A DNA stretch of 64,000 nt. Origin: a virus. The stretch covers positions 44,356 through 108,355 of IMG/VR virus record IMGVR_UViG_3300042731_009409; one strand, given 5' to 3'. Positions 22,813 through 60,237 of the stretch are shown in pieces. The notes under the pieces were generated by a model that saw only the letters and a list, made by a program, of their open reading frames with translations, was not told the DNA's origin and did no database searches. Each line of letters opens with the position of its first letter. The stretch's first letter is position 1. The translations under genes and the position numbers were made by a program.

Positions 22813-23274
22813 TTACAACCAATTGAAACAAGAATCATGTTTTTCACGATCTTTTGTAAGACCTACCTCTCTAAGATCTGTTCCTGTCAGATCTGCTCCT
22901 GTAAAGTTTACCTCTCTAAGATCTGCCCCTGTCAGGTTTGCCAATCTAAGATCTACATTTTCTAAATTTGATTTGTATAGGTTTGACCGTCTAAGATCTG
23001 CCCATCTAAGATCAGACCGTCTAAAATCTGCCCCCCTAAGATCTGCCCATCTAAGATCCACCCACCTAAGATCCGCCCACCTAAGTTCTGCCCCTCTAAG
23101 TTCTGCTCCTCTGAGATCTGCTCCTCTAAGATCTGCCCAACTAAGATCTGCCCCTCTAAGATCTGCCCCTCTAAGATCCGCTCCGCTCAAATCCGCTCCG
23201 CTCAAAGTGGCTTCGCACAAATCAGCACATTGCAAATCTCTTCTCCCACGTTTTATTTCGTCTATTAAGCTCAT
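22813..23274 (-). CDS. Pentapeptide-repeat protein (short)
   Basis: About 153 residues from the ATG at 23274, which overlaps the upstream stop as ATGA. From residue ~18 nearly the whole protein is A(D/N)LRGADLRWAD-type pentapeptides (~22 repeats), the signature of a right-handed quadrilateral beta-helix. The family includes gyrase-binding DNA mimics, but most members have no known target. A short non-repeat C-terminal cap (KDREKHDSCFNWL) follows. Second of a tandem pair. Confidence 0.8.
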   Translation of the reverse strand: MSLIDEIKRGRRDLQCADLCEATLSGADLSGADLRGADLRGADLSWADLRGADLRGAELRGAELRWADLRWVDLRWADLRGADFRRSDLRWADLRRSNLYKSNLENVDLRLANLTGADLREVNFTGADLTGTDLREVGLTKDREKHDSCFNWL

Positions 23275-24080
23275 TCTACCCCCCCCCAAACTAAGAATTC
23301 GGTGACTCGGTACTTCGATCCCGCTTTGTGGAGATTATGAGCCTCGAAAAGCACGGAGATCACCTCTGAGCGGTATCGAGCTTCGCGCTTCGCTTCTTGA
23401 AATGTAGGAAAAACATAAAGCCCGGGATGACATTCGGTGTCGCAAGTCGAAAACACTGGCGCTTTGTACAACTCGCCTACTTCGTATATCGTCGATCCAA
23501 TATACTTTGATTCCCGAGTCCTATACCCGATCTTCCAACTGGCGTCGTGGTCTACGAAATTGTCAGCCAAGCCGTTTGGGGGATTTGTCGGATCTAAGCA
23601 TGTTTGGGACAAATCGGCTCCGCTCAAATAGGCTTCTCTCAAACAGGCTTCTCTAAGATCGGCTCCGCTCAAACAGGCTTCTCTAAGATCGGCTCCGCTC
23701 AAATAGGCTTCTCTCAAACAGGCTTCTCTAAGATCGGCTTCTCTAAGATCGGCTCCGCTCAAATAGGCTCCGAGCAAATCGGCTCCGCTCAAATAGGCTC
23801 CGAGCAAATCGGCTCCGCTCAAATCGGCTCCGAGCAAATCGGCTCCGCTCAAATCGGCTCCGAGCAAATCGGCTCCGCTCAAATCGGCCCTTCGCAAATC
23901 GGCTCCGCTCAAATCGGCTCCGCTCAAATCGGCTCCTCTAAGATCTGCCCAACTAAGAACTGCTCCTCTAAGAACTGCTCCTCTAAGATCCAACCACCTA
24001 AGATCCAACCACCTAAGATCTGCCCAAGAAAAATCTCTTTCTCCATTTTTATATTTTTTTAGAAGTTCTTCGCGCATCAT
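23271..24080 (-). CDS. Pentapeptide-repeat protein with C-terminal globular domain
   Basis: 269 residues. Residues ~17-165 are pentapeptide repeats dominated by LSGADLLGADLSGADLREA units, highly regular at the DNA level (15-base period). Residues ~170-269 form a distinct domain (KYIGSTIYEVGELYKAPVF, HPGLYVFPTFQEAKREARY) like the domain (DUF5758-type) that follows pentapeptide repeats in other phage proteins. ATGA overlaps join it to the glycosylase gene upstream and the second repeat gene downstream. Target unknown. Confidence 0.8.
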   Translation of the reverse strand: MMREELLKKYKNGERDFSWADLRWLDLRWLDLRGAVLRGAVLSWADLRGADLSGADLSGADLRRADLSGADLLGADLSGADLLGADLSGADLLGAYLSGADLLGAYLSGADLREADLREACLREAYLSGADLREACLSGADLREACLREAYLSGADLSQTCLDPTNPPNGLADNFVDHDASWKIGYRTRESKYIGSTIYEVGELYKAPVFSTCDTECHPGLYVFPTFQEAKREARYRSEVISVLFEAHNLHKAGSKYRVTEFLVWGGVE

Positions 24081-27828: not shown

Positions 27829-28356
27829 TTATTTTGATTTTATTAATATGTCGTTCTCATCTCTCACCCAAGCTTTTCCAAATGGTTGATTTTTATAATG
27901 CGAGCCAATCCCCTGTAACAGTTTTAACCGAAGCACTTCCTCCGCTTCCATACCGAGATGTTTAGCAATTTGTTTTTCTTTCCAACCTAGTGTTAACAAT
28001 TTTTCTACCATATCCCCCATTAAATCTATTTGATGTTTTCCTCTAGCCCGATTATGTCTTATCGTTGACGCCATGCGATCTTTTATATTTTTATTTATAA
28101 CAACAATAGGAATTTTCTCGCATTTAAATTCTCTAGTCAAAACTATAAAACGATGGAATCCATCTACAACTATATATTTATTTATTTCCGAATCAAAATA
28201 AGTAACTATAGGTTGCGTAACACCATCCTCAGAAATAGAGTGTTTCAGTAAAGATAATTCCTTGCTTGCAACTTTGTTAGGGTTATAATCATTTGAAATA
28301 ACTCTGTTTGATTCTACCATTTTAACTTTCAAAACCGGGAATTTTATTTTTTTCAT
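27829..28356 (-). CDS. ibrB: ParB/sulfiredoxin-fold protein, IbrB-like
   Basis: About 175 residues from the ATG at 28356, which overlaps the IbrA-like stop as ATGA. The ParB-type domain reads LLKHSISEDGVTQPIV, YIVVDGFHRFIVLTREF (the GFHR loop), and TIRHNRARGKHQI. A helix-turn-helix-like end follows (KQIAKHLGMEAEEVLRLK). IbrB partners always sit beside a PAPS-reductase-fold IbrA, as here. In E. coli they were described as regulators of immunoglobulin-binding proteins. Their biochemistry in phages is not settled. Confidence 0.8.
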   Translation of the reverse strand: MKKIKFPVLKVKMVESNRVISNDYNPNKVASKELSLLKHSISEDGVTQPIVTYFDSEINKYIVVDGFHRFIVLTREFKCEKIPIVVINKNIKDRMASTIRHNRARGKHQIDLMGDMVEKLLTLGWKEKQIAKHLGMEAEEVLRLKLLQGIGSHYKNQPFGKAWVRDENDILIKSK

Positions 28357-29444
28357 AATATTTTCATCCATTTTTCTTTTATATTTTCTGTTTTTTCTTT
28401 TGTTTTAGAAGTATTGACGGAAATATTGTTTTCCCAATCATTTATCAACAACTGTCTGACTTGTTGTCTATGGACATTTATATCATTAGGTTGTTTATCA
28501 AATCTATTTTTAAATCTTTTCTTCCTATGCTCGGCCATTTCTTCTAATAAAAAATTTCTATATTCCAACCATGATTTAAATTTTTTCGGCAATTTTTTTG
28601 CAGAATACATTTGGTGTTCTTTCGAATATATCCCTGCTGTATGGGCACCTTTTATTCTTTTTGTTAATTTATCATAATTCTCTGGTTCGAATTCTTGAAG
28701 TGTAGCCAGGCTTTTATATGATTTTTCGTGCAACAAAAAACTCACTCTAAAATCATTTATACTTACATTTTTCACCCATAAATAATCATATATTCTATTA
28801 TATTCTATATTATATTTCCCCATATATGTCCAAATATCTTCAAAAGACCAATCATAAACTGGATAGAATCTGATTGATTTTCCTTTTCCTTTTGACGACC
28901 AATTAATATTTTTTATTGCCGGATTTCTAGTTACAGCACCAAATCTATTCAAACTTTCTTCTGTTCTCAATCCGACAAGAAATGCAGTTTTTTTATCTTG
29001 GATTCCTTCAAACCAATCCATAAAATCATAAAATCTTTCTGGTGCATTTGGTTCGCTGTGTATTGCTATAGAATCTTTTTCTCTCAACCAATTTTCGTTT
29101 TTTCCCCAAGCATAAAACCATTCGCTTTCGTAAGATGTTGCATTTGTCATTTTTATTGGTACCTGATACCAGTAAGGTTCTACATTTTTTTTATTCATTA
29201 TTTGTTTTACAACCTTTATGCTAGAATCATATTCTGCTTCTTGATCCAAAAAAAATACCTTAATAATTCTGTCAGATTCTAAAGCAATTTTATACGCTAT
29301 TTCAAATACAACATGACTATCTTTTCCGCCCGAAATTGATACTATTATGTTTTCATATTTATTGAAAATCCATCTTATTCTTTTTTTTGCCGCTTCTAAA
29401 ACGTTACAATTTATATATAATTTTCTACCATCTTTATTTTTCAT
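28353..29444 (-). CDS. ibrA: PAPS-reductase/ATP-pyrophosphatase fold protein, IbrA-like (DUF3440)
   Basis: 363 residues. The PP-loop SISGGKDSHVVFEI (near residue 38) binds ATP. KVFFLDQEAEYDSS and MDWFEGIQDKKTAFLVGLRTEES follow as in PAPS reductases. RFYPVYDWSFEDIWTYMGKY and the YDYLWVKNVSINDFRVSFL to KSYKSLATLQEFEPENYDKL region match the DUF3440 C-terminal part of IbrA. The redox Cys of true PAPS reductases is not evident, so adenylation or thiolation chemistry is more likely than sulfate reduction. Overlaps the helicase-domain gene by 11 bases. Confidence 0.85.
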   Translation of the reverse strand: MKNKDGRKLYINCNVLEAAKKRIRWIFNKYENIIVSISGGKDSHVVFEIAYKIALESDRIIKVFFLDQEAEYDSSIKVVKQIMNKKNVEPYWYQVPIKMTNATSYESEWFYAWGKNENWLREKDSIAIHSEPNAPERFYDFMDWFEGIQDKKTAFLVGLRTEESLNRFGAVTRNPAIKNINWSSKGKGKSIRFYPVYDWSFEDIWTYMGKYNIEYNRIYDYLWVKNVSINDFRVSFLLHEKSYKSLATLQEFEPENYDKLTKRIKGAHTAGIYSKEHQMYSAKKLPKKFKSWLEYRNFLLEEMAEHRKKRFKNRFDKQPNDINVHRQQVRQLLINDWENNISVNTSKTKEKTENIKEKWMKIL

Positions 29445-36751: not shown

Positions 36752-36795
36752 TTATAACCTACTTACTTTCCTTTATTTATTTCTCTGCTCACATT

Positions 36796-36823
36796 ATTAT
36801 GACACGGCGTTTGGCTGGCGCAA
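36796..36823 (-). promoter_or_regulatory. Class A repeated promoter
   Basis: Minus strand: TTGCGC, 16 bases (CAGCCAAACGCCGTGT), CATAAT. Upstream of the G+C-rich gene. Confidence 0.65.
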
Positions 36824-36840
36824 GTATTTTATCTAAATAG

Positions 36841-36885
36841 TCTATTACCTTTTCATCCAATCTTCGTATTCTGCTTCTGTGAATT
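36841..36885 (-). pseudogene. 3' remnant of a Cys-x-x repeat gene
   Basis: Encodes FTEAEYEDWMKR and stop, the same as the end of the 37474-37872 gene. The identity continues through the class A promoter to ~36,779, making a ~105-bp near-perfect direct repeat with 37,409-37,515. The rest of the gene is absent; a different 58-residue gene lies upstream. Confidence 0.7.
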
Positions 36886-36906
36886 TTTACCTCTTTATTT
36901 CTTGCG

Positions 36907-37083
36907 CTAAGCGCAAGCGCATTTAAACCCATGACGCTTCAAAGCAGTTTCGGCCGCTTTGATTGATTCAAATAGCATTTTGTCGCCAGTAATTTGGTTA
37001 ATCACCCAGGTTTGTTTTTTGGTTTGGCCGAGCATATTGGAAACTTCCTTTTGCATTATTGTGTAGATCCCTTTTTCAAACAT
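36907..37083 (-). CDS. Hypothetical 58-residue protein
   Basis: ATG at 37083 behind AAGGAGAGG. FEKGIYTIMQKEVSNMLGQ is followed by QTWVINQITGDKMLFESIKA and an end with two Cys (FKCACA). The stop overlaps a 7-bp stem (CTTGCGC/GCGCAAG). Lies directly upstream of the Cys-gene remnant. Unrecognised. Confidence 0.5.
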   Translation of the reverse strand: MFEKGIYTIMQKEVSNMLGQTKKQTWVINQITGDKMLFESIKAAETALKRHGFKCACA

Positions 37084-37114
37084 TTTTCCTCTCCTTGTTT
37101 CTCACGGTATTTCT

Positions 37115-37137
37115 CCGTGTCTCATTTCTGGTACACG
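37115..37137. repeat. 24-bp dispersed element (copy 1, reverse)
   Basis: CCGTGTCTCATTTCTGGTAC then ACG. Same element as 11 other intergenic copies; see consensus in the findings. Confidence 0.7.
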
Positions 37138-37150
37138 TAAGGCTATAAGG

Positions 37151-37387
37151 CTAAGCAACGCTCATTTTACTAAAAGTACAAACAAAGGCTTTCCAGGTCA
37201 GCTTGAAATACTCAAGCTTTAAATACCCGATTACTTCGCGAATATCTTGGGTTTCTTTGCTGTCGCTGGAAAGCATTAAACGAGTAAATTGACCGTTTAG
37301 AGCACAAGTGATCATGTTTTTGGCCATTTCGCTGTCATCCCATTGTTTACGCCATGCAATTGCTTCGTTTATATTTGTTATTTGCAT
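37151..37387 (-). CDS. Hypothetical protein
   Basis: 78 residues, helical. NINEAIAWRKQWDDSEMAKN followed by VIGYLKLEYFKLTWKAFVC. No motif recognised. Transcribed from a class A promoter 50 bases upstream, with the shared AAAGGAAAGT ribosome leader. Confidence 0.5.
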   Translation of the reverse strand: MQITNINEAIAWRKQWDDSEMAKNMITCALNGQFTRLMLSSDSKETQDIREVIGYLKLEYFKLTWKAFVCTFSKMSVA

Positions 37388-37434
37388 TTTACTTTCCTTT
37401 GTTTGTTTCTCTGCTCACATTATTATTATGACAT

Positions 37435-37462
37435 AGTATTTGGCTGGCGCAAGTATTTTATC
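37435..37462 (-). promoter_or_regulatory. Class A repeated promoter
   Basis: Minus strand: TTGCGC, 16 bases, CATAAT. Part of the 105-bp repeat shared with 36,779-36,883. Confidence 0.65.
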
Positions 37463-37473
37463 TAAATAGTCTA

Positions 37474-37872
37474 TTACCTTTTCATCCAATCTTCGTATTC
37501 TGCTTCTGTGAATTGGATGTTTTTTATCATGTATCTTGAATCTTGAATATTTGAACAGTTTGAGCATTTTGAGCAATCTGAGCAGTCTGAGCAGTCAGAA
37601 CAATCTGAACAACCTGAGCATTCTGAACAACCATAACAATCTGAACAATTTGAGCAGTCTGAGCAGTCTGAGCAACCATAACAATCTGAACAATTTGAGC
37701 AGTCTGAGCAGTCTGAGCAACCATAACAATCTGAACAATTTGAGCAGTCTGAGCAGTCTGAGCAATTTGAGCAGTCTGAGCATCCAAAACAATCTGAACA
37801 ACGTATACAGTCTTTGTTCGTTTTTTTCAAAAAACCTGTTCTTCCCAATTTTAATATTTCTTCTTTTTTCAT
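37474..37872 (-). CDS. Cys-x-x repeat protein, member 1
   Basis: 132 residues. The start EEILKLGRTGFLKKTNKDC and end IQFTEAEYEDWMKR are conserved in all four family members here. Between them ~85 residues are repeats of Cys every third position (CSDCSNCSDCYGCSDC), built from a 45-base DNA unit repeated about three times exactly. Around 30 Cys could bind metal clusters or line the inside of a solenoid like pentapeptide repeats. Family not named. Class A promoter. Confidence 0.65.
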   Translation of the reverse strand: MKKEEILKLGRTGFLKKTNKDCIRCSDCFGCSDCSNCSDCSDCSNCSDCYGCSDCSDCSNCSDCYGCSDCSDCSNCSDCYGCSECSGCSDCSDCSDCSDCSKCSNCSNIQDSRYMIKNIQFTEAEYEDWMKR

Positions 37873-37908
37873 TTTACTTTCCTTTGTTTGTTTGTTGCTC
37901 ACAATATT

Positions 37909-37936
37909 ATTATGACACGGTGTTTAGTTGGTGCAA
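37909..37936 (-). promoter_or_regulatory. Class A repeated promoter
   Basis: Minus strand: TTGCAC, 16 bases (CAACTAAACACCGTGT), CATAAT. Drives Cys-x-x repeat member 1. Confidence 0.65.
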
Positions 37937-37939
37937 CTT

Positions 37940-38104
37940 TTATTTGAAAATTTCTGAATTTATGGCCATATCCATAAAAGCGTTCCCGGCGTCAATAAGT
38001 GTTTTCGAACAGTGGTCACAAAATAGTTCGTTATCCTCGGACAACCAGCCATTTTCGCTCAAATCTACTTCTTTGCCACAGATTTCACATTTCAAAGTTT
38101 CCAT
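37940..38104 (-). CDS. 54-residue zinc-knuckle protein
   Basis: METLKCEICGKEVDLSENGW then ELFCDHCSKTLIDAG: two CxxC knuckles 20 residues apart, a minimal zinc-binding module. The C-terminus is a short hydrophobic helix. Class B promoter with LexA-like box. Several such tiny zinc proteins occur in this region; host-factor binding is plausible. Confidence 0.6.
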   Translation of the reverse strand: METLKCEICGKEVDLSENGWLSEDNELFCDHCSKTLIDAGNAFMDMAINSEIFK

Positions 38105-38148
38105 TTTATTTTCCTTTGTTTGTTTGTTTGTTTGTTGCTCACAATATA

Positions 38149-38176
38149 AATATAGCTGGTAAAATACTTCCCGCAA
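38149..38176 (-). promoter_or_regulatory. Class B repeated promoter
   Basis: Minus strand: TTGCGG, 16 bases, TATATT, with the operator at 38179-38190 just upstream. Confidence 0.65.
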
Positions 38177-38178
38177 CT

Positions 38179-38190
38179 GAACATTTGTTC
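38179..38190. promoter_or_regulatory. LexA-like operator, copy 2
   Basis: GAACATTTGTTC, identical to copies at 33937 and 39686. Confidence 0.55.
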
Positions 38191-38208
38191 TAAAAAAGTA
38201 CTTTAAAT

Positions 38209-38244
38209 GCATAATCCTTGCTCTTTGATTTGCAAGGATTATGC
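38209..38244. other. Perfect 13-bp hairpin
   Basis: Arms GCATAATCCTTGC and GCAAGGATTATGC with a 10-base loop. No T-run directly follows on either strand. Confidence 0.65.
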
Positions 38245-38245
38245 C

Positions 38246-38268
38246 CGGTAGGCGCGAAGCGCCTACCG
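38246..38268. other. Perfect 10-bp hairpin with GAA loop
   Basis: Arms CGGTAGGCGC and GCGCCTACCG around GAA, one base from the previous hairpin. The GCGAAGC tip is an unusually stable DNA mini-hairpin. May act with its neighbour as a terminator pair or a single-strand signal. Confidence 0.6.
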
Positions 38269-38299
38269 TATATTCTGTGTTCTTCAAATATGTATTTCT

Positions 38300-38323
38300 C
38301 CGTGGCTCATTTCTGGTACACGG
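38300..38323. repeat. 24-bp dispersed element (copy 2, reverse)
   Basis: CCGTGGCTCATTTCTGGTAC then ACGG, just after the stop of the small helical gene. Confidence 0.7.
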
Positions 38324-38328
38324 GTATT

Positions 38329-38493
38329 TTAGTTTGTTTTAGATTTTTCTGATTTCTGAAATTCTTCCCATTCCTTTAATTCTTTCCGGGCAGATATAAG
38401 CATTTCTTCAATCTTTTCCGGAGTGGTATTTGATTCTAGATACAGATCAATAATCTTGGTTATTCTTTTTCCGTATTCCTCTATATTCAACAT
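38329..38493 (-). CDS. Hypothetical helical protein
   Basis: About 54 residues from the ATG at 38493 (site AAGGAAG). LNIEEYGKRITKIIDLYLES and EKIEEMLISARKELKEWEEF form two amphipathic helices. A copy of the 24-bp element lies in its leader and another after its stop. Unrecognised. Confidence 0.5.
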   Translation of the reverse strand: MLNIEEYGKRITKIIDLYLESNTTPEKIEEMLISARKELKEWEEFQKSEKSKTN

Positions 38494-38506
38494 TTTGCTT
38501 CCTTTC

Positions 38507-38530
38507 CCGTGTACCATAAATGAGCCACGG
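38507..38530. repeat. 24-bp dispersed element (copy 3, forward)
   Basis: CCGTGTACCATAAATGAGCC then ACGG, in the leader of the gene at 38329-38493. Confidence 0.7.
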
Positions 38531-38587
38531 AGTAGTTTGTGGGGTTGGCTTTATATTATCCGAATACTTATTTATTCGGATATTTCC

Positions 38588-38609
38588 CCGTGTCTCATTT
38601 TTGGTACAC
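38588..38609. repeat. 24-bp dispersed element (copy 4, reverse)
   Basis: CCGTGTCTCATTTTTGGTAC then AC. Confidence 0.7.
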
Positions 38610-38681
38610 AGCAACTCCATTTATTATTGTGGCATACAAAAGTACTTGTGCAAACATAAAAGTACTTTTTCAAATATTTTC

Positions 38682-38705
38682 CCGTGTACCATTTTTGGGC
38701 CACGG
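38682..38705. repeat. 24-bp dispersed element (copy 5, forward)
   Basis: CCGTGTACCATTTTTGGGCC then ACGG. Confidence 0.7.
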
Positions 38706-38780
38706 AGATATTCTGGGATAAGTATCCTATTGTCCTATTTGCCTATTTTGGTTTACTTTTAAAAAGGTGAGCCGCCACAA

Positions 38781-38920
38781 GCTCATTTCACCAGAATAAA
38801 CTATTCTCACTCGCTCATTTCACCAGAATAAACTATTCTCACCAACAAGAATCACCATATTCTCACTAACCTGTTTCACCTATCCTCACTAACTTATATC
38901 CTCTACTATCATATTCTTAC
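38781..38920. repeat. Iteron-like tandem repeats
   Basis: GCTCATTTCACC followed by AGAATAAACTATTCTCAC at 38781-38810, exactly repeated at 38813-38842. Degenerate TATTCTCAC, TATCCTCAC and TATTCTTAC follow at 38858, 38881 and 38912. Each full unit has an internal dyad AGAATA-AAC-TATTCT. Confidence 0.65.
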
Positions 38921-39147
38921 CAGTTCATTTTATTATATTCTCTCTCTTCTTGTATATATATTGGGAGGTAAAGAAGTGTTTTTCCTATATATATCCTTTA
39001 TATTGTTCTTATCTCTCTTTATATCCTCTCTCTCTTATATAGGAGAACTTTATTTTTATATTGTGGGGGATTTGGAATATGGTATGTTTTTGAAAGAATA
39101 GATGATTTGAAAGTACTTAATATATCTTCCTTCTCTATATATACTCT

Positions 39148-39169
39148 CGTGTCTCATTTCTGGTACACG
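39148..39169. repeat. 24-bp dispersed element (copy 6, reverse)
   Basis: CGTGTCTCATTTCTGGTACA then CG, inside the AT-rich gene-free tract. Confidence 0.7.
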
Positions 39170-39320
39170 ATGGTTTATTCTTTATATTCTTTTATGGGGG
39201 AAATATTTATATTTTTTATTTTATTTTGTGTTTATTTTGTGTTTATTTTGGAAAAGAATGTAACTAGTTGAAATCATTGAAGAAAATTGTATTTAAGCAA
39301 AATATGTTAAAAATATGGCT

Positions 39321-39345
39321 CCGTGTACCAGAAATGAGACACGAG
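39321..39345. repeat. 24-bp dispersed element (copy 7, forward)
   Basis: CCGTGTACCAGAAATGAGAC then ACGAG. Confidence 0.7.
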
Positions 39346-39390
39346 AGCGTATTTTCAACCGTCTACATTTATGTTTCATCAGCAAGTATT

Positions 39391-39615
39391 TTACCTACTC
39401 ATCCAGTCTTCGTATTCTTCTTGCGTGAATTGGATGTTGTTTATCTTGTATTTTGAATTTTGAATATTTAAGCAATCAAAACACTTATAACAATCTGAGC
39501 AGTCGGAGTTTTCGCAGTCCAAACAATATAAGCAATACGTGCAATTCTTGTTTGGACCGTTCCATTGTCTTAAATATCCTGTTCTTCCTAGTTTTAGTAA
39601 TTCGGTTTTTTCCAT
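39391..39615 (-). CDS. Cys-x-x repeat protein, member 2 (shortest)
   Basis: 74 residues. Family start TELLKLGRTGYLRQWN and end IQFTQEEYEDWMSR enclose only ~25 repeat residues (CTYCLYCLDC, then CSDCYKCFDC). The conserved caps with a variable number of Cys-x-x units show length change by repeat gain or loss. Class B promoter with LexA-like box. Confidence 0.65.
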   Translation of the reverse strand: MEKTELLKLGRTGYLRQWNGPNKNCTYCLYCLDCENSDCSDCYKCFDCLNIQNSKYKINNIQFTQEEYEDWMSR

Positions 39616-39655
39616 TATTGTTTCTTTCTTTTTTTGTTGTGTCGTTCACATTATA

Positions 39656-39683
39656 AATATAGTACTTCAAATACTTTCGACAA
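39656..39683 (-). promoter_or_regulatory. Class B repeated promoter
   Basis: Minus strand: TTGTCG, 16 bases, TATATT, with the operator two bases upstream. Confidence 0.65.
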
Positions 39684-39685
39684 CT

Positions 39686-39697
39686 GAACATTTGTTC
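39686..39697. promoter_or_regulatory. LexA-like operator, copy 3
   Basis: GAACATTTGTTC, identical to copies at 33937 and 38179. Confidence 0.55.
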
Positions 39698-39703
39698 TAT
39701 TTT

Positions 39704-40066
39704 TCAGACAAGCCTTAAAAAAGGGGGATCTTTCTGCGTTTTTTCTGCAGAAGCTTGAGGAATGGAATTTTCAATCGTTCCTGCCAACGAATTGAGGTTG
39801 ATACAATCATAATTGATGTCGATGTAAGTAAATGGAACATCATAGTTTCCACATGCACATGGTTCTGCACGCAAACCGCGTCGATTTTTTCCTGCAAAAG
39901 GCACGATTACTTCTAGTAGACTGTCACAATCCATGCATTTTGCCTTAAATGGTGCAAGATCATATTCCTTGCACCATTTTTCTAGATCGACATTATAGAT
40001 CACCATATGATGAAAACCCAGATCAATATGCTTTCTTTTCCATTTTTGAGTTCTGTTCTTTTTCAT
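39704..40066 (-). CDS. Zinc-ribbon-like protein
   Basis: 120 residues. AKCMDCDSLLEVIVPFAG and AEPCACGNYD give two Cys pairs ~25 residues apart around a beta hairpin. The N-terminus is strongly basic (KKNRTQKWKRKHIDLG). Nucleic-acid binding is plausible. Last gene before the LexA-like box of the next transcript. Confidence 0.5.
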   Translation of the reverse strand: MKKNRTQKWKRKHIDLGFHHMVIYNVDLEKWCKEYDLAPFKAKCMDCDSLLEVIVPFAGKNRRGLRAEPCACGNYDVPFTYIDINYDCINLNSLAGTIENSIPQASAEKTQKDPPFLRLV

Positions 40067-40103
40067 TTTCTTTGCTCAAATATAATCATTTGGTATTATC
40101 TTT

Positions 40104-40316
40104 CTATTTGTATGGATATATCATTTCGCTTAAATTTTTGTCTTTCTTTCGTTGGACATAAAATTTACCACCATTTTCAGTTATTTCAGAAAAATACTTT
40201 TCCAACCCAATTGCATGCCGAATAACCGATGATACAGTTATTTCATTATCCTCGGCTATTTTCTCCAAAATTTTCCAAACCTTTTCTGGCAGAGTAGCTT
40301 CTATTCTCTTTTTCAT
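40104..40316 (-). CDS. Ribbon-helix-helix-type DNA-binding protein, copy 1
   Basis: 70 residues. KKRIEATLPEKVWKILEKIA is the beta strand plus first helix and NEITVSSVIRHAIGLEKYF the second helix of a CopG/MetJ-like fold; a C-terminal extension ends LSEMIYPYK. Nearly identical to the gene at 42577-42789, differing only at the ends. Probably a dimeric repressor, possibly of the repeated promoters. It directly follows a Cys-x-x repeat gene. Confidence 0.65.
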   Translation of the reverse strand: MKKRIEATLPEKVWKILEKIAEDNEITVSSVIRHAIGLEKYFSEITENGGKFYVQRKKDKNLSEMIYPYK

Positions 40317-40318
40317 TT

Positions 40319-40645
40319 TTACCTACTCATCCAGTCTTTATATTCTGTTTCTGTGAATTGGATATTTTTTATCATGAATTTTGAATTTTTAATATTTGAA
40401 CAACCAAAACAATTTGAGCATTTAGAACAATTTAAACAACCAGAACAACCAGAACAACCAGAACAACCAATACAATCTAAACAATCTTGGCATTTAGAAC
40501 AATCTAAACAATCTTGGCATTTAGAACAATCTAAACAATCTTGGCATTCTGAGCAATCAAAACAATCTATGCAACGGTGGCAGTCCTTATTTGTTCTTTT
40601 CAAAAATCCAGTTTTTCCTAATTTTAACAATTCGGTTTTTTCCAT
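40319..40645 (-). CDS. Cys-x-x repeat protein, member 3
   Basis: 108 residues. Start TELLKLGKTGFLKRTNKDC and end IQFTETEYKDWMSR. The repeat tract is ~65 residues (CQDCLDCSKC repeated, then CIGCSGCSGC). Its repeat units differ in sequence from member 1, so copies have evolved separately while keeping Cys every third residue. The start overlaps the neighbouring gene's stop by 22 bases. Confidence 0.65.
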   Translation of the reverse strand: MEKTELLKLGKTGFLKRTNKDCHRCIDCFDCSECQDCLDCSKCQDCLDCSKCQDCLDCIGCSGCSGCSGCLNCSKCSNCFGCSNIKNSKFMIKNIQFTETEYKDWMSR

Positions 40646-40830
40646 TGCTTTTCCACTTTCGTTTCTATCTTTCCATAATATTCTGGAAACTCACTGATAT
40701 GTCTCAATCTGGCTTGATAAATGGTTTCATCATCCTTTTTATAACCTTCCGGAAGAGATGGAATTAAATATACTTCTCCTTCGTCGATATTTTCATTTAC
40801 AACAAATTCAAAGTTAAATGTCTTGTTCAT
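40624..40830 (-). CDS. Hypothetical protein
   Basis: 68 residues. NFEFVVNENIDEGEVYLIPS followed by TIYQARLRHISEFPEYYGK. Acidic start, basic end. No motif recognised. Overlaps both neighbours slightly, in line with a real gene in a compact operon. Confidence 0.45.
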   Translation of the reverse strand: MNKTFNFEFVVNENIDEGEVYLIPSLPEGYKKDDETIYQARLRHISEFPEYYGKIETKVEKQWKKPNC

Positions 40831-41089
40831 GTATCCCGTATCTTTCTTTTATTTTGTTCTTTTGTCCATCAAGGGGCAAATTTATTTCTTTCGGCTTGCC
40901 CCACAGTAATTTCCCGCAATTCCATCTGTCAATCCCAATTGACAATGATACTGGTGTTTCTGGTGGAATAAACTCGGTTGGCATTAAACCATTAAACCAC
41001 TTTATGCACGTGTTTGATTCAATCCATTTCAGAGTTTTTACTAATTTTTCGCGATTTCTACAAAATATTCTAATTTTTTCCATTTTCAT
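40814..41089 (-). CDS. Distant member of the WLEENT family
   Basis: About 91 residues from the ATG at 41089 (41083 also possible). REKLVKTLKWIESNTCIKWF and MPTEFIPPETPVSLSIG follow the same order as the 27357 and 34652 genes (helix, WIESNT, Pro-rich strand). No conserved end. Unknown function. Confidence 0.5.
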   Translation of the reverse strand: MKMEKIRIFCRNREKLVKTLKWIESNTCIKWFNGLMPTEFIPPETPVSLSIGIDRWNCGKLLWGKPKEINLPLDGQKNKIKERYGIHEQDI

Positions 41090-41097
41090 AATATTTA

Positions 41098-41490
41098 TCA
41101 ACCCATTTTTTTATATATTTCTCGTATTCTTTGGACATATTCCTCAAACCCAGGCATTTTTACGCCGTCTTCATCCTGCATTTTTAAAAAAATGCCCCAA
41201 GCTCTTCTACTAACATAATGTGCTTTCATTGCTTCGCGTTTATTTTTGAATGGGCCTAAAGTATGACTTCCACAAATATTGCAGATATATGAAAGGCTTA
41301 TAATGTCCTTTGGTTTGTTTGAATGATCACCACAATCCTGACAGACATAAAAATGCAAGTCTTCCTCATTTTCTGGCCCTAAAATAAAATCGAATTCATT
41401 AAACAATTTGTAGTCTTCTTTATTTTTTGACATTTTTGGTTTTCTTAGTTTATTTTCCGACTGCCCAACCTCTTTTTTCATACGTTCCAT
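41098..41490 (-). CDS. Zinc-ribbon-like protein
   Basis: 130 residues; translation may begin at 41433 instead. YVCQDCGDHSNK and YICNICGSHTLG are two CxxC knuckles ~20 residues apart, a typical ribbon. The rest is charged (KREAMKAHYVSRRAWGIFLK). Neither start has a good ribosome site. Binding partner unknown. Confidence 0.5.
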   Translation of the reverse strand: MERMKKEVGQSENKLRKPKMSKNKEDYKLFNEFDFILGPENEEDLHFYVCQDCGDHSNKPKDIISLSYICNICGSHTLGPFKNKREAMKAHYVSRRAWGIFLKMQDEDGVKMPGFEEYVQRIREIYKKMG

Positions 41491-41644
41491 GTTTATAATG
41501 TACTTTTATGACAATTGGATATATTTGTTCACCTTCTTTTCTTTCGTCAAATACTTTAGAGTACTCTGCATCATCATAAATTTTTCTGCAAGTTAGTTTT
41601 TTATCTTTTTCATATTCTGGTGTGATTTCTATTCTCTTTTTCAT
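41450..41644 (-). CDS. Hypothetical protein, possible chimera with RHH gene start
   Basis: 64 residues. The first residues and leader (MKKRIE, with identical upstream bases through the end of a Cys-x-x repeat gene) match those of the ribbon-helix-helix gene at 40104, but the rest (YEKDKKLTCRKIYDDAEYSK) is unrelated. Suggests replacement of the body of the gene by recombination just after the start codon. Function unknown. Confidence 0.45.
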   Translation of the reverse strand: MKKRIEITPEYEKDKKLTCRKIYDDAEYSKVFDERKEGEQIYPIVIKVHYKHGTYEKRGWAVGK

Positions 41645-41646
41645 TT

Positions 41647-42117
41647 TTACCTACCCATCCAGTTTTCGTATTCTTCTTGCGTAAATTGGATATTATCTAT
41701 CATATACTTTGAATTTTGAATATCAGAACAACCAGCGCAATCAGAACAGCGTGAACACTCTGAACAACTTAAACATTTTTTACAGCCCGAACACTCTAAA
41801 CAACCTAAACACTCTGAACAGTTTGAACAGTCTAAACAGTCTAAACAGTCTAAACAACGTGAGCAGTCTAAACAGTATAAACAGTATAAACAATGTGAGC
41901 AACGCGAACAGTCCGAACAACGTGAACAGTCCGAACAACCAGAGCAAGACGAACAACCAGAACAACCAGAGCAAGACGAACAACTATAACAATGCGAGCA
42001 ATCAGAGCATTCTGAACAATCTAAACAATACAAGCATTTGGAACAATTCTTATTTGAATTGTTCCATTGTCTTAAATATCCTGTTCTTCCTAGTTTTAGT
42101 AATTCGGTTTTTTCCAT
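41647..42117 (-). CDS. Cys-x-x repeat protein, member 4 (longest)
   Basis: About 156 residues from the ATG at 42117. Start TELLKLGRTGYLRQWNNSNK and end IQFTQEEYENWMGR. About 110 residues of Cys-x-x (CSGCSGCSSCSGCSDCSRC, then CLDCLDCLDC), ~38 Cys. The upstream stop shares a base with the ATG (TAATG). Same leader region as member 2. See findings for the family. Confidence 0.65.
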   Translation of the reverse strand: MEKTELLKLGRTGYLRQWNNSNKNCSKCLYCLDCSECSDCSHCYSCSSCSGCSGCSSCSGCSDCSRCSDCSRCSHCLYCLYCLDCSRCLDCLDCLDCSNCSECLGCLECSGCKKCLSCSECSRCSDCAGCSDIQNSKYMIDNIQFTQEEYENWMGR

Positions 42118-42332
42118 TATTGTTTCTTTCTTTTTTTGTACCGGTATCGGATATGAAAAGCCGATGAACAACCCATCACATCACAATTATGCGTTTCATC
42201 GATTGGGTCGCCTAATACTATAATTTCTGTGTCCGTTTCATAACATTCTCTTAGTATACCCTCCGGGAAATTCGACAAGGGGACATGGACAATAATTTTA
42301 TCGTCCCTAAGAATATGTAAAGATGTATTCAT
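42117..42332 (-). CDS. Hypothetical protein
   Basis: About 71 residues from the ATG at 42332 (site AAGGA eight bases ahead; 42338 is an alternative). LHILRDDKIIVHVPLSNFPE and ETDTEIIVLGDPIDETHNCD. Small beta-rich fold, basic end (RYKKRKKQ). Overlaps the Cys-x-x gene start by one base. Unrecognised. Confidence 0.45.
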   Translation of the reverse strand: MNTSLHILRDDKIIVHVPLSNFPEGILRECYETDTEIIVLGDPIDETHNCDVMGCSSAFHIRYRYKKRKKQ

Positions 42333-42345
42333 TGCCATTTCCTTA

Positions 42346-42564
42346 CTAAAACAAAATATCCAGACGTTTATTTTCGAATTCAATTATTTTTTCAACATCT
42401 CCGGTCATCTCGATATAATCTGCAATTTCATTGTATTTTTTAAAATTGCAAGATCTCAAATATTTACAAAACTCAGTTATACAAGCGTTAAATTTGTTTT
42501 TATCAAATTTAAGATATCTTGTTTTCCTCACAAAATTATCTATAGTTTCAATATGTTTAATCAT
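42346..42564 (-). CDS. Hypothetical helical protein
   Basis: 72 residues, all helical. IKHIETIDNFVRKTRYLKFD and YNEIADYIEMTGDVEKIIEF. Two Cys in FNACITEFCKYLRSCNF. No family recognised. Confidence 0.45.
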   Translation of the reverse strand: MIKHIETIDNFVRKTRYLKFDKNKFNACITEFCKYLRSCNFKKYNEIADYIEMTGDVEKIIEFENKRLDILF

Positions 42565-42576
42565 TTATCATTTCCT

Positions 42577-42789
42577 TTATCTATATGGATATATCATTTC
42601 GCTTAAATTTTTGTCTTTCTTTCGTTGGACATAAAATTTACCACCATTTTCAGTTATTTCAGAAAAATACTTTTCCAACCCAATTGCATGCCGAATAACC
42701 GATGATACAGTTATTTCATTATCCTCGGCTATTTTCTCCAAAATTTTCCAAACCTTTTCTGGCAGAGTGAATTCTATTCTCTTTTCCAT
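42577..42789 (-). CDS. Ribbon-helix-helix-type DNA-binding protein, copy 2
   Basis: 70 residues, a near-identical duplicate of the gene at 40104-40316 (changes only in the first ~7 residues and the last). The DNA identity covers almost the full gene, so duplication is recent or is maintained by recombination. Same predicted dimeric DNA-binding fold. Confidence 0.65.
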   Translation of the reverse strand: MEKRIEFTLPEKVWKILEKIAEDNEITVSSVIRHAIGLEKYFSEITENGGKFYVQRKKDKNLSEMIYPYR

Positions 42790-42790
42790 T

Positions 42791-43198
42791 TTACACTACC
42801 GTTCCGGTTGTAATCACCAGATCAAATGAGCCTTTCGGAAGACCTTTTGATACATCAATTTTATTTTTGTTCCACTTTGAAAACCATTCAGTTAATTTTT
42901 TAAATTTTGTTTTAGAGACTGTTTCATCTTCCTCCCACCATTCTTGATAATCCTTTATTTCATCGCAAGATCTTGTTGCGGCTTGCACCAAATACAGATC
43001 TAAAGGCAAATCATCTGTATTAATAATATATTTTTGATTTACGTTTAAAAGACTCAATTCTTCCTTGGTTGGGTCTTTAATTTTAATGTATTCTTGGTTT
43101 ACGCGTTTCAAAACCCTCAATTCCTCTTCGGTTGGTTTCTCAATTTTAAAATATGATGCCACTTCGGGCATTTCGTTCCAAATCAGTAATACATTCAT
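42791..43198 (-). CDS. Hypothetical protein with internal repeat
   Basis: 135 residues. Two related segments, KPTEEELRVLKRVNQEYIK and DPTKEELSLLNVNQKYI, indicate an internal duplication in residues ~20-55. The C-terminal part has DYQEWWEEDETVSK and KLTEWFSKWNKNK. ATGA-coupled upstream. Unrecognised. Confidence 0.45.
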   Translation of the reverse strand: MNVLLIWNEMPEVASYFKIEKPTEEELRVLKRVNQEYIKIKDPTKEELSLLNVNQKYIINTDDLPLDLYLVQAATRSCDEIKDYQEWWEEDETVSKTKFKKLTEWFSKWNKNKIDVSKGLPKGSFDLVITTGTVV

Positions 43199-47430: not shown

Positions 47431-47454
47431 CCGTGTACCAAAAATGAGCCACAC
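47431..47454. repeat. 24-bp dispersed element (copy 9, forward)
   Basis: CCGTGTACCAAAAATGAGCC then ACAC, touching the next copy. Confidence 0.7.
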
Positions 47455-47476
47455 GTGTACCAAAAATGAGCCACGG
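47454..47476. repeat. 24-bp dispersed element (copy 10, forward)
   Basis: CGTGTACCAAAAATGAGCCA then CGG, in tandem with copy 9. Confidence 0.7.
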
Positions 47477-47485
47477 GAGAAAATG

Positions 47486-47509
47486 CCGTGTACCAGAAAT
47501 GAGCCACGG
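47486..47509. repeat. 24-bp dispersed element (copy 11, forward)
   Basis: CCGTGTACCAGAAATGAGCC then ACGG, ~90 bases ahead of the winged-helix gene. Confidence 0.7.
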
Positions 47510-48041: not shown

Positions 48042-48065
48042 CCGTGTACCAAAAATGAGCCACGG
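48042..48065. repeat. 24-bp dispersed element (copy 12, forward)
   Basis: CCGTGTACCAAAAATGAGCC then ACGG, at the head of the structured region before the replication genes. Confidence 0.7.

Positions 48066-58998: not shown

Positions 58999-58999
<1 letters not shown>
58559..58999 (+). CDS. Small helical protein of phage recombination loci
   Basis: 146 residues, helical. MRKIGYETAYWGRLLAKAER, CEIQYRNWRAKETEKLI and VNVLERFFQALNNNAFIL follow the layout of a protein seen next to SSB and RecA genes in many phages, with no settled function. The ATG shares a base with the ssDNA-binding protein's stop region on the far side. Likely a mediator or fork-associated factor. Confidence 0.55.

Positions 59000-60237
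<1,238 letters not shown>

What the first reader, a model, noticed from the sequence alone, without database searches (positions are those of the whole stretch)
36841..42117. Family of Cys-x-x repeat proteins with variable repeat number
Four genes (37474, 39391, 40319, 41647) share conserved caps (ELLKLGRTG-L and NIQFT-EY-WM-R) around Cys every third residue for ~25 to ~110 residues (roughly 8 to 38 Cys). Period-3 Cys fits no common zinc finger. A solenoid with stacked Cys, or a polymetallic sponge, is possible. The repeat DNA (45-base unit in member 1) allows rapid length change. This could be an undescribed phage protein family and perhaps an undescribed metal- or redox-based system.
Basis: partly seen in the sequence, partly recalled or inferred. 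Interest (0 to 1): 0.85.

Follow-up and report, generated by a model that had tools for sequence, protein, structure and literature searches.

The report
Phage cysteine-every-third-residue repeat proteins
This phage carries four sister genes for small proteins built around a row of up to 36 cysteines placed at every third residue; relatives are widespread in phages, and the way their end domains are shared with known rod-shaped repeat proteins suggests an undescribed kind of cysteine-lined protein rod rather than a metal sponge.

Summary
Four genes on the minus strand (132, 74, 108 and 156 aa) have conserved caps around 29, 8, 21 and 36 Cys at every third residue; shuffled windows give runs of at most 4. 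Linkage to neighbouring ORFs (TAATG) and mixed TGT/TGC Cys codons support translation.

The family is large: up to 198 relatives per IMG/VR scan, copies in bacterial genomes of several phyla, and cultured Campylobacter, Vibrio and Flavobacterium phages. In 186 arrays, 5182 of 5258 inter-Cys spacings are exactly 3 and only 4 leave the register. No Pfam or NCBIfam family fits.

The main clue is domain sharing. Three C-terminal domains found behind Cys arrays also sit behind pentapeptide repeats, YdcK/hexapeptide beta-solenoids or GGTI repeats. The Cys array is therefore most likely a beta-solenoid rod with a cysteine-lined core, used by phages as an interchangeable, length-variable scaffold. No neighbouring gene points to metal or redox chemistry.

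Weak points: AlphaFold did not fold the array, no rung length is visible, and the window's own cap was seen only with Cys arrays. The target is unknown.

The parts
37474..37872 (-). Cys-x-x repeat protein, member 1 (132 aa, 29 Cys; array residues 22-106); N cap MKKEEILKLGRTGFLKK, C cap NIQDSRYMIKNIQFTEAEYEDWMKR
37552..37797 (-). tandem-repeat DNA of the member 1 array (45-, 27- and 9-base periods)
39391..39615 (-). Cys-x-x repeat protein, member 2 (74 aa, 8 Cys, one break of register)
40319..40645 (-). Cys-x-x repeat protein, member 3 (108 aa, 21 Cys); start overlaps the upstream ORF 40624-40830; RHH-like ORF starts directly after its stop
40394..40569 (-). tandem-repeat DNA of the member 3 array (9-, 18-, 27- and 54-base periods)
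41647..42117 (-). Cys-x-x repeat protein, member 4 (156 aa, 36 Cys); TAATG overlap with the upstream ORF 42117-42383
41744..41992 (-). tandem-repeat DNA of the member 4 array (9-, 18-, 27- and 36-base periods)
36793..36893 (-). relic fifth copy: last codons of a C cap (FTEAEYEDWMKR-stop) plus downstream flank of member 1 (46-base flank 91% identical to 37422-37467)
   Evidence: sequence; families D3 and D7
40107..40316 (-). 70-aa ribbon-helix-helix-like ORF directly downstream of member 3 (linked gene; fold judged by eye only)
42580..42789 (-). 96%-identical second copy of the RHH-like ORF

Best explanation
The four proteins are paralogous accessory proteins of a tailed phage, made inside the host cell. 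Each is a rigid rod of variable length between a small helical N cap and a small C cap. The rod is a beta-solenoid whose wall turns at each Cys-x-x triplet: the Cys side chains point inwards and pack the narrow core, while the two x residues (mostly Ser plus Asp, Gly, Arg or Asn) form the surface. Rungs of about 12 residues (four triplets), as in the Tenebrio antifreeze beta-helix, are one plausible geometry. Gain and loss of 9-base units and unequal recombination between paralogues change rod length, while the caps stay fixed. In the wider family the same C-terminal domains carry Cys, pentapeptide, YdcK/hexapeptide or GGTI arrays, so the rod is an exchangeable scaffold that presents a surface and positions the C-terminal domain. 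The likely use is binding a host or phage macromolecule during infection (takeover or counter-defence). Shown: arrays, register, caps, paralogy, domain sharing in relatives, neighbourhoods. Inferred: the solenoid fold. Guess: the binding role and its target.
For: (1) Exchange of array type. The C-terminal domain D1 (WHTC-TTHCRAGW...) sits behind Cys arrays in 75 and behind pentapeptide arrays in 51 of 133 distinct proteins. D2 (GSR...CGCF-GTL-EF) sits behind Cys arrays and behind a hexapeptide solenoid in Chryseobacterium phage MA9V-1 (Pfam Hexapep 5e-8; domain BLASTP 2e-12). D3 (RSDGY...AGCR-F...GGTPLGDE) sits behind Cys, pentapeptide, YdcK (PF18836, 1.8e-38) and GGTI arrays, with at least 5 changes of type on a 19-row tree. 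Pentapeptide and YdcK arrays have solved beta-solenoid structures (YdcK 2f9c; pentapeptide proteins). (2) Register: 5182 of 5258 inter-Cys spacings are exactly 3 and only 4 leave the register; the 12 in-register replacements of Cys are Ser 7, Tyr 2, Leu 2, Gly 1, with no His or acidic residue. (3) Outward residues of Cys and pentapeptide arrays with D1 are alike (JS divergence 0.11, against 0.38 to background). (4) The structurally relevant PDB sequence match is the Tenebrio antifreeze beta-helix 1ezg, with Cys in a period-3-compatible register (E 3.7e-4 and 0.003, composition-biased). (5) Neighbours with a known family are mostly DNA polymerase, DnaN, RecA, exonuclease and HU genes. (6) Paralogue clusters recur: L094 5, L151 6, L102 4, G003 3.
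Against: AlphaFold2 did not fold the array: pLDDT about 33-48 in the window protein and 41-47 in a relative; Foldseek found nothing useful. No rung length shows in residue autocorrelation or in array lengths, although a solenoid might be expected to favour one. On the D1 tree, Cys and pentapeptide arrays form one split (SH-aLRT 86), so that domain shows one exchange, not many. The window's own C cap was found only with Cys arrays, so its membership in the exchangeable set is by array similarity alone. No function has been tested for any member.
Confidence: 0.5

Rival explanations
1. Metallothionein-like sponge or polymetallic/Fe-S array: the CxxC motifs bind Zn, Cu or Fe-S clusters along the chain to buffer metal or carry electrons.
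For: In members 1, 3 and 4 about a fifth of all residues are Cys, all in CxxC spacing, a density near that of metallothioneins (own knowledge). Cys is almost never replaced.
Against: Exact period-3 register with only 4 slips in 5258 spacings is stricter than a metal sponge needs. Exchange with pentapeptide and YdcK arrays, which lack the Cys register, behind the same domains suggests the function does not require metal. No metal or Fe-S gene among 112 neighbours.
Confidence: 0.15
2. Thiol/redox buffer or redox-switched rod: Cys pairs form disulfides when the host suffers oxidative stress, stiffening or inactivating the protein.
For: Stacked Cys would be close enough to pair; the Tenebrio antifreeze protein 1ezg, which matches weakly, uses core disulfides (own knowledge).
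Against: No redox partner among neighbours; no export signal was seen in the caps by eye; exchange with arrays that lack the Cys register.
Confidence: 0.1
3. Precursor of a modified peptide, with Cys-x-x as the modification register, comparable to His-Xaa-Ser repeat proteins.
For: Weak compositional match of one relative to HxsA4 (24.5 bits, cut-off 55); both have period-3 repeats.
Against: Below the curated cut-off; no radical SAM, HxsB/C/D or similar enzyme among 112 neighbours; many members carry a folded C-terminal domain (high pLDDT outside the array).
Confidence: 0.04
4. Three-residue-per-turn helix (polyproline II or 3-10) with a stripe of Cys on one face, bundling through that face.
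For: Array lengths change by single triplets with no preferred multiple, as a three-residue turn would allow.
Against: The main partner array types in the same protein slot (pentapeptide, YdcK, hexapeptide) are beta-solenoids.
Confidence: 0.12
5. DNA mimic acting on gyrase or a nucleic-acid defence protein, like MfpA or Qnr.
For: Shared domain with pentapeptide proteins, the repeat class of MfpA and Qnr (PDB relatives); member 1 array is acidic (16 acidic, 2 basic); relatives lie among replication genes.
Against: Net charge over the family is only -0.04 per residue and the array of member 4 is mixed (13 acidic, 7 basic).
Confidence: 0.09

Closest known systems
PHROG 15341 and PHROG 31265 (phage protein families of unknown function)
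   Same: Window members match 15341 (E 5.5e-17 and 1.4e-17 for members 1 and 4); Cys-array relatives with domain D1 match both 15341 and 31265; 31265 also matches the pentapeptide versions.
   Different: No function or structure is assigned; the window's caps are not covered by the matched stretches.
Pentapeptide repeat proteins (Pfam PF00805; MfpA, Qnr)
   Same: Same slot before domains D1 and D3; similar outward residues.
   Different: Repeat is three residues with Cys, not A(D/N)LXX; no PF00805 match to any Cys-array protein tested.
YdcK / hexapeptide beta-solenoid proteins (PF18836, PF00132; PDB 2f9c, 2pig)
   Same: Same slot before domains D2 and D3 in other phages.
   Different: Different repeat; no match to the Cys arrays.
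Insect Cys-rich antifreeze protein (PF02420, IPR016133; PDB 1ezg)
   Same: Cys in a period-3-compatible register; weak sequence match; a Vibrio phage relative (AUR97317.1) is annotated 'insect antifreeze protein'.
   Different: Lacks the 12-residue TCTxSxxCxxAx unit; PF02420 does not match over its cut-off.
Unnamed proteins of cultured phages: Campylobacter phage CP220 CPT_0032, CP21_165 and CP21_166, Flavobacterium phage FL-1
   Same: Cys-x-x arrays with their own conserved N caps, deposited as hypothetical proteins.
   Different: Different caps from the window; no study of function found in the paper library.
His-Xaa-Ser repeat protein HxsA4 (NF038313)
   Same: Period-3 repeat, compositional match.
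   Different: Score below cut-off, other residues, no maturation genes.

Membership tests
Pentapeptide repeat proteins (PF00805) | tandem A(D/N)LXX repeats | tested here: not met
   No Pfam match in the four window proteins or in relatives.
Pentapeptide repeat proteins (PF00805) | shared C-terminal domain (architecture, not repeat) | tested here: inconclusive
   Met for family members with D1 and D3; the window's own C cap was not found on pentapeptide proteins.
Pentapeptide repeat proteins (PF00805) | right-handed quadrilateral beta-helix fold | tested here: inconclusive
   AlphaFold2 array pLDDT 33-48.
YdcK beta-solenoid (PF18836) / hexapeptide repeat (PF00132) | YdcK or hexapeptide repeat sequence | tested here: not met
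   No match in Cys-array proteins.
Insect antifreeze protein (PF02420) | 12-residue TCTxSxxCxxAx repeat over the family cut-off | tested here: not met
   No match in G000 and none over the cut-off in eight related records.
Metallothionein | match to a curated metallothionein family | tested here: not met
   No Pfam match; no metallothionein model among the NCBIfam matches.
Metallothionein | stoichiometric metal binding | not testable with these tools
   Needs purified protein and ICP-MS.
His-Xaa-Ser repeat RiPP precursor (HxsA4) | score over the curated cut-off (55 bits) | tested here: not met
   Best 24.5 bits in one relative, none in the two window members tested.
His-Xaa-Ser repeat RiPP precursor (HxsA4) | adjacent radical SAM / maturation genes | tested here: not met
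   None among 112 neighbouring ORFs of relatives.
Phage Cys-x-x array family (described here) | at least 5 Cys in exact period-3 register between caps | tested here: met
   Members 1, 3 and 4 fully; member 2 falls short, with one register break that leaves 8 Cys in two blocks of 4, and is included by its caps.

The most novel reading that the evidence does not exclude
The arrays form a new beta-solenoid class whose core is a continuous ladder of stacked cysteines, and at least some members use that ladder chemically, as a metal- or redox-active wire or switch whose length the phage tunes by repeat expansion.
Probability: 0.1. Interest if true: 0.92.

Novelty: new variant of a known kind. Interest (0 to 1): 0.66.

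Why it matters
It would add a new repeat class to the beta-solenoid proteins, with a very short repeat unit (three residues) and a cysteine-lined core in proteins made in the reducing cytoplasm. It also shows that phages keep one C-terminal domain and exchange the solenoid in front of it (Cys, pentapeptide, YdcK, GGTI), which makes a testable set for asking what these common phage proteins of unknown function do. Cultured phages carry members, so experiments are possible now.

Tried and rejected
Pfam, NCBIfam and PHROGs on the window proteins: no named family. tblastn of the array against phages finds nothing, probably because BLAST masks low complexity; caps and C-terminal domains were used instead. 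AlphaFold2 on the window family and on a relative: array not folded; Foldseek of both models: nothing. Search for a rung length in residue autocorrelation and array-length multiples: none. Search for repeated exchange on the D1 tree: a single split instead. Search for the window's C cap on other repeat types: only Cys arrays found; many other pattern hits were unrelated proteins. Match to LIM protein 9e5c: the alignment shows composition only, rejected. HxsA4 match: below cut-off. A short DNA pattern for the array was mis-specified (8-base period) and is not used. Antisense CNH-type runs in L008 are the reverse complement of the Cys array.
Full report
1. The observation. The window is part of a 108,355-base IMG/VR virus record of a tailed phage: TerL, portal, DnaB, primase, DNA polymerase and UvsX genes are present. 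Four minus-strand ORFs encode Cys-x-x arrays of 29, 8, 21 and 36 Cys between conserved caps. Members 1, 3 and 4 have Cys at every phase position (86 of 86); their Cys codons are 55 TGT and 31 TGC and never TGA or TGG, as expected for a frame under protein-level selection. Member 4 starts in a TAATG overlap with the previous ORF and member 3 starts inside the previous ORF; both are followed within a few bases by the next ORF. Shuffled windows give no Cys run longer than 4.

2. Recent turnover. The N caps of members 2 and 4 are 94% identical in DNA (68 of 72) while their arrays differ from 8 to 36 Cys. Array DNA is tandemly repeated with periods that are multiples of 9 bases. A relic of a fifth 3' end lies at 36793-36893, and the 70-aa ORF downstream of member 3 is duplicated at 96% protein identity. 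This fits unequal recombination in a cluster of paralogues. Other phages carry similar clusters with different array lengths: L094 five, L151 six, L102 four, G003 three.

3. The family. Bacterial genome contigs hold Cys-array versions in Alphaproteobacteria, Bacteroidota, Acidobacteria, Patescibacteria and others, probably prophages (not tested). Cultured phages carry them too: Campylobacter phages CP220 and CP21, Vibrio phage 1.238.A (annotated 'insect antifreeze protein') and Flavobacterium phage FL-1. Over 186 distinct arrays the spacing between Cys is 3 in 5182 of 5258 cases; spacings 1 and 2 (61 cases) fit extra Cys at x positions, 6 and 9 (11 cases) fit replaced Cys, and only 4 cases leave the register. 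Position C+1 is mostly Ser; C+2 is Asp, Gly, Arg or Asn.

4. What the array replaces. Three C-terminal domains are shared with other repeat classes. D1 (WHTC-TTHCRAGW): 75 Cys, 51 pentapeptide, 7 other or short. On a tree of D1 the two types form a single split with support 86, so one exchange is enough. D2 (GSR...CGCF): Cys arrays in several phages; a hexapeptide solenoid in Chryseobacterium phage MA9V-1. D3 (AGCR...GGTPLGDE): one Cys array, plus pentapeptide, YdcK and GGTI arrays, with 5 changes of type on 19 rows where 3 is the least possible; branch support on that small tree is limited. Pentapeptide and YdcK arrays are beta-solenoids by solved structures. An array type that takes the place of known solenoids before three different domains is most simply a solenoid itself. 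This is inference, not a structure.

5. Structure attempts. AlphaFold2 models left the array unfolded (pLDDT about 33-48), while the caps and the D1 region were modelled with more confidence. Foldseek gave nothing. By sequence, the structurally relevant PDB match is the Tenebrio antifreeze beta-helix 1ezg (E 3.7e-4 with relative P0007, 0.003 with member 4, strongly composition-biased); its Cys lie in a period-3-compatible register. The lists also hold zinc-finger-like chains at higher E-values. Autocorrelation shows no rung length.

6. Function. Pfam matches among 112 neighbouring ORFs of the family genes include DNA polymerase, DnaN, 5'-3' exonuclease, RecA, HU, HNH and PD-(D/E)XK proteins, each in one or two cases, and no radical SAM, metal or redox enzyme; most neighbours match nothing. 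The outward residues of Cys and pentapeptide arrays that share D1 are alike (JS divergence 0.11 against 0.38 to background) and nearly neutral, which speaks against a general DNA-mimic role, although member 1 is acidic. The best-supported reading is an intracellular, length-variable binding rod used during infection. The target is unknown.

7. Limits. The window's own C cap (YMI-NIQ-T-EEY--WM) was found only with Cys arrays in several searches, so its link to the exchangeable set rests on the array and on PHROG 15341. Library searches of papers found no description; most subscription papers and bioRxiv preprints are not held, so prior description cannot be excluded.

Noticed in passing
37116-37137, 38301-38322, 38508-38529, 38589-38610, 39148-39169, 39322-39343, 47432-47453, 47454-47475, 47487-47508, 48043-48064: 22-base element CGTGTACC-[AG]AAATGAG-CAC[AG], 10 copies against 0 expected, on both sides of the divergence of gene direction near 44 kb; possibly a regulatory signal.
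   Followed up: partly
40105-40335 and 42578-42808: Duplicated 70-aa RHH-like gene, 94% DNA and 96% protein identity, one copy directly downstream of member 3.
   Followed up: partly
22813-24080: Two adjacent pentapeptide repeat proteins in the same phage (Pfam E 3e-47 and 3e-44); no shared caps with the Cys arrays were seen by eye.
   Followed up: partly
28353-29444: Phosphoadenosine phosphosulfate reductase-like gene (PHROG 2302, E 2e-93); sulfur assimilation or a DNA-modification relative.
   Followed up: no
59780-60060: Long Asp/Glu-rich tandem repeat inside ORF 58999-60237.
   Followed up: no
38781-38893: Short tandem repeats (32 and 23 bases) in a gene-poor stretch between members 1 and 2.
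   Followed up: no
L209, minus strand: Array whose first part reads as VIVII repeats and then as YNC repeats in one frame: a frameshift within the array, natural or a sequencing error.
   Followed up: no
L218:1495-1722 (Campylobacter phage CJLB-12) and L087:3482-4200 (Flavobacterium phage FL-1): Array interrupted by a stop codon in CJLB-12, and D1 domain interrupted by an apparent frameshift in FL-1; decay or sequencing error.
   Followed up: no
L201:5617-6234: D1 domain behind an Ala/Trp-rich repeat (AAWAADW), a further repeat type, long branch on the tree.
   Followed up: no
L309, L310: D3 domain behind GGTIxGGTI repeats; the L310 protein matches no Pfam family; another apparently undescribed solenoid-like repeat.
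   Followed up: partly
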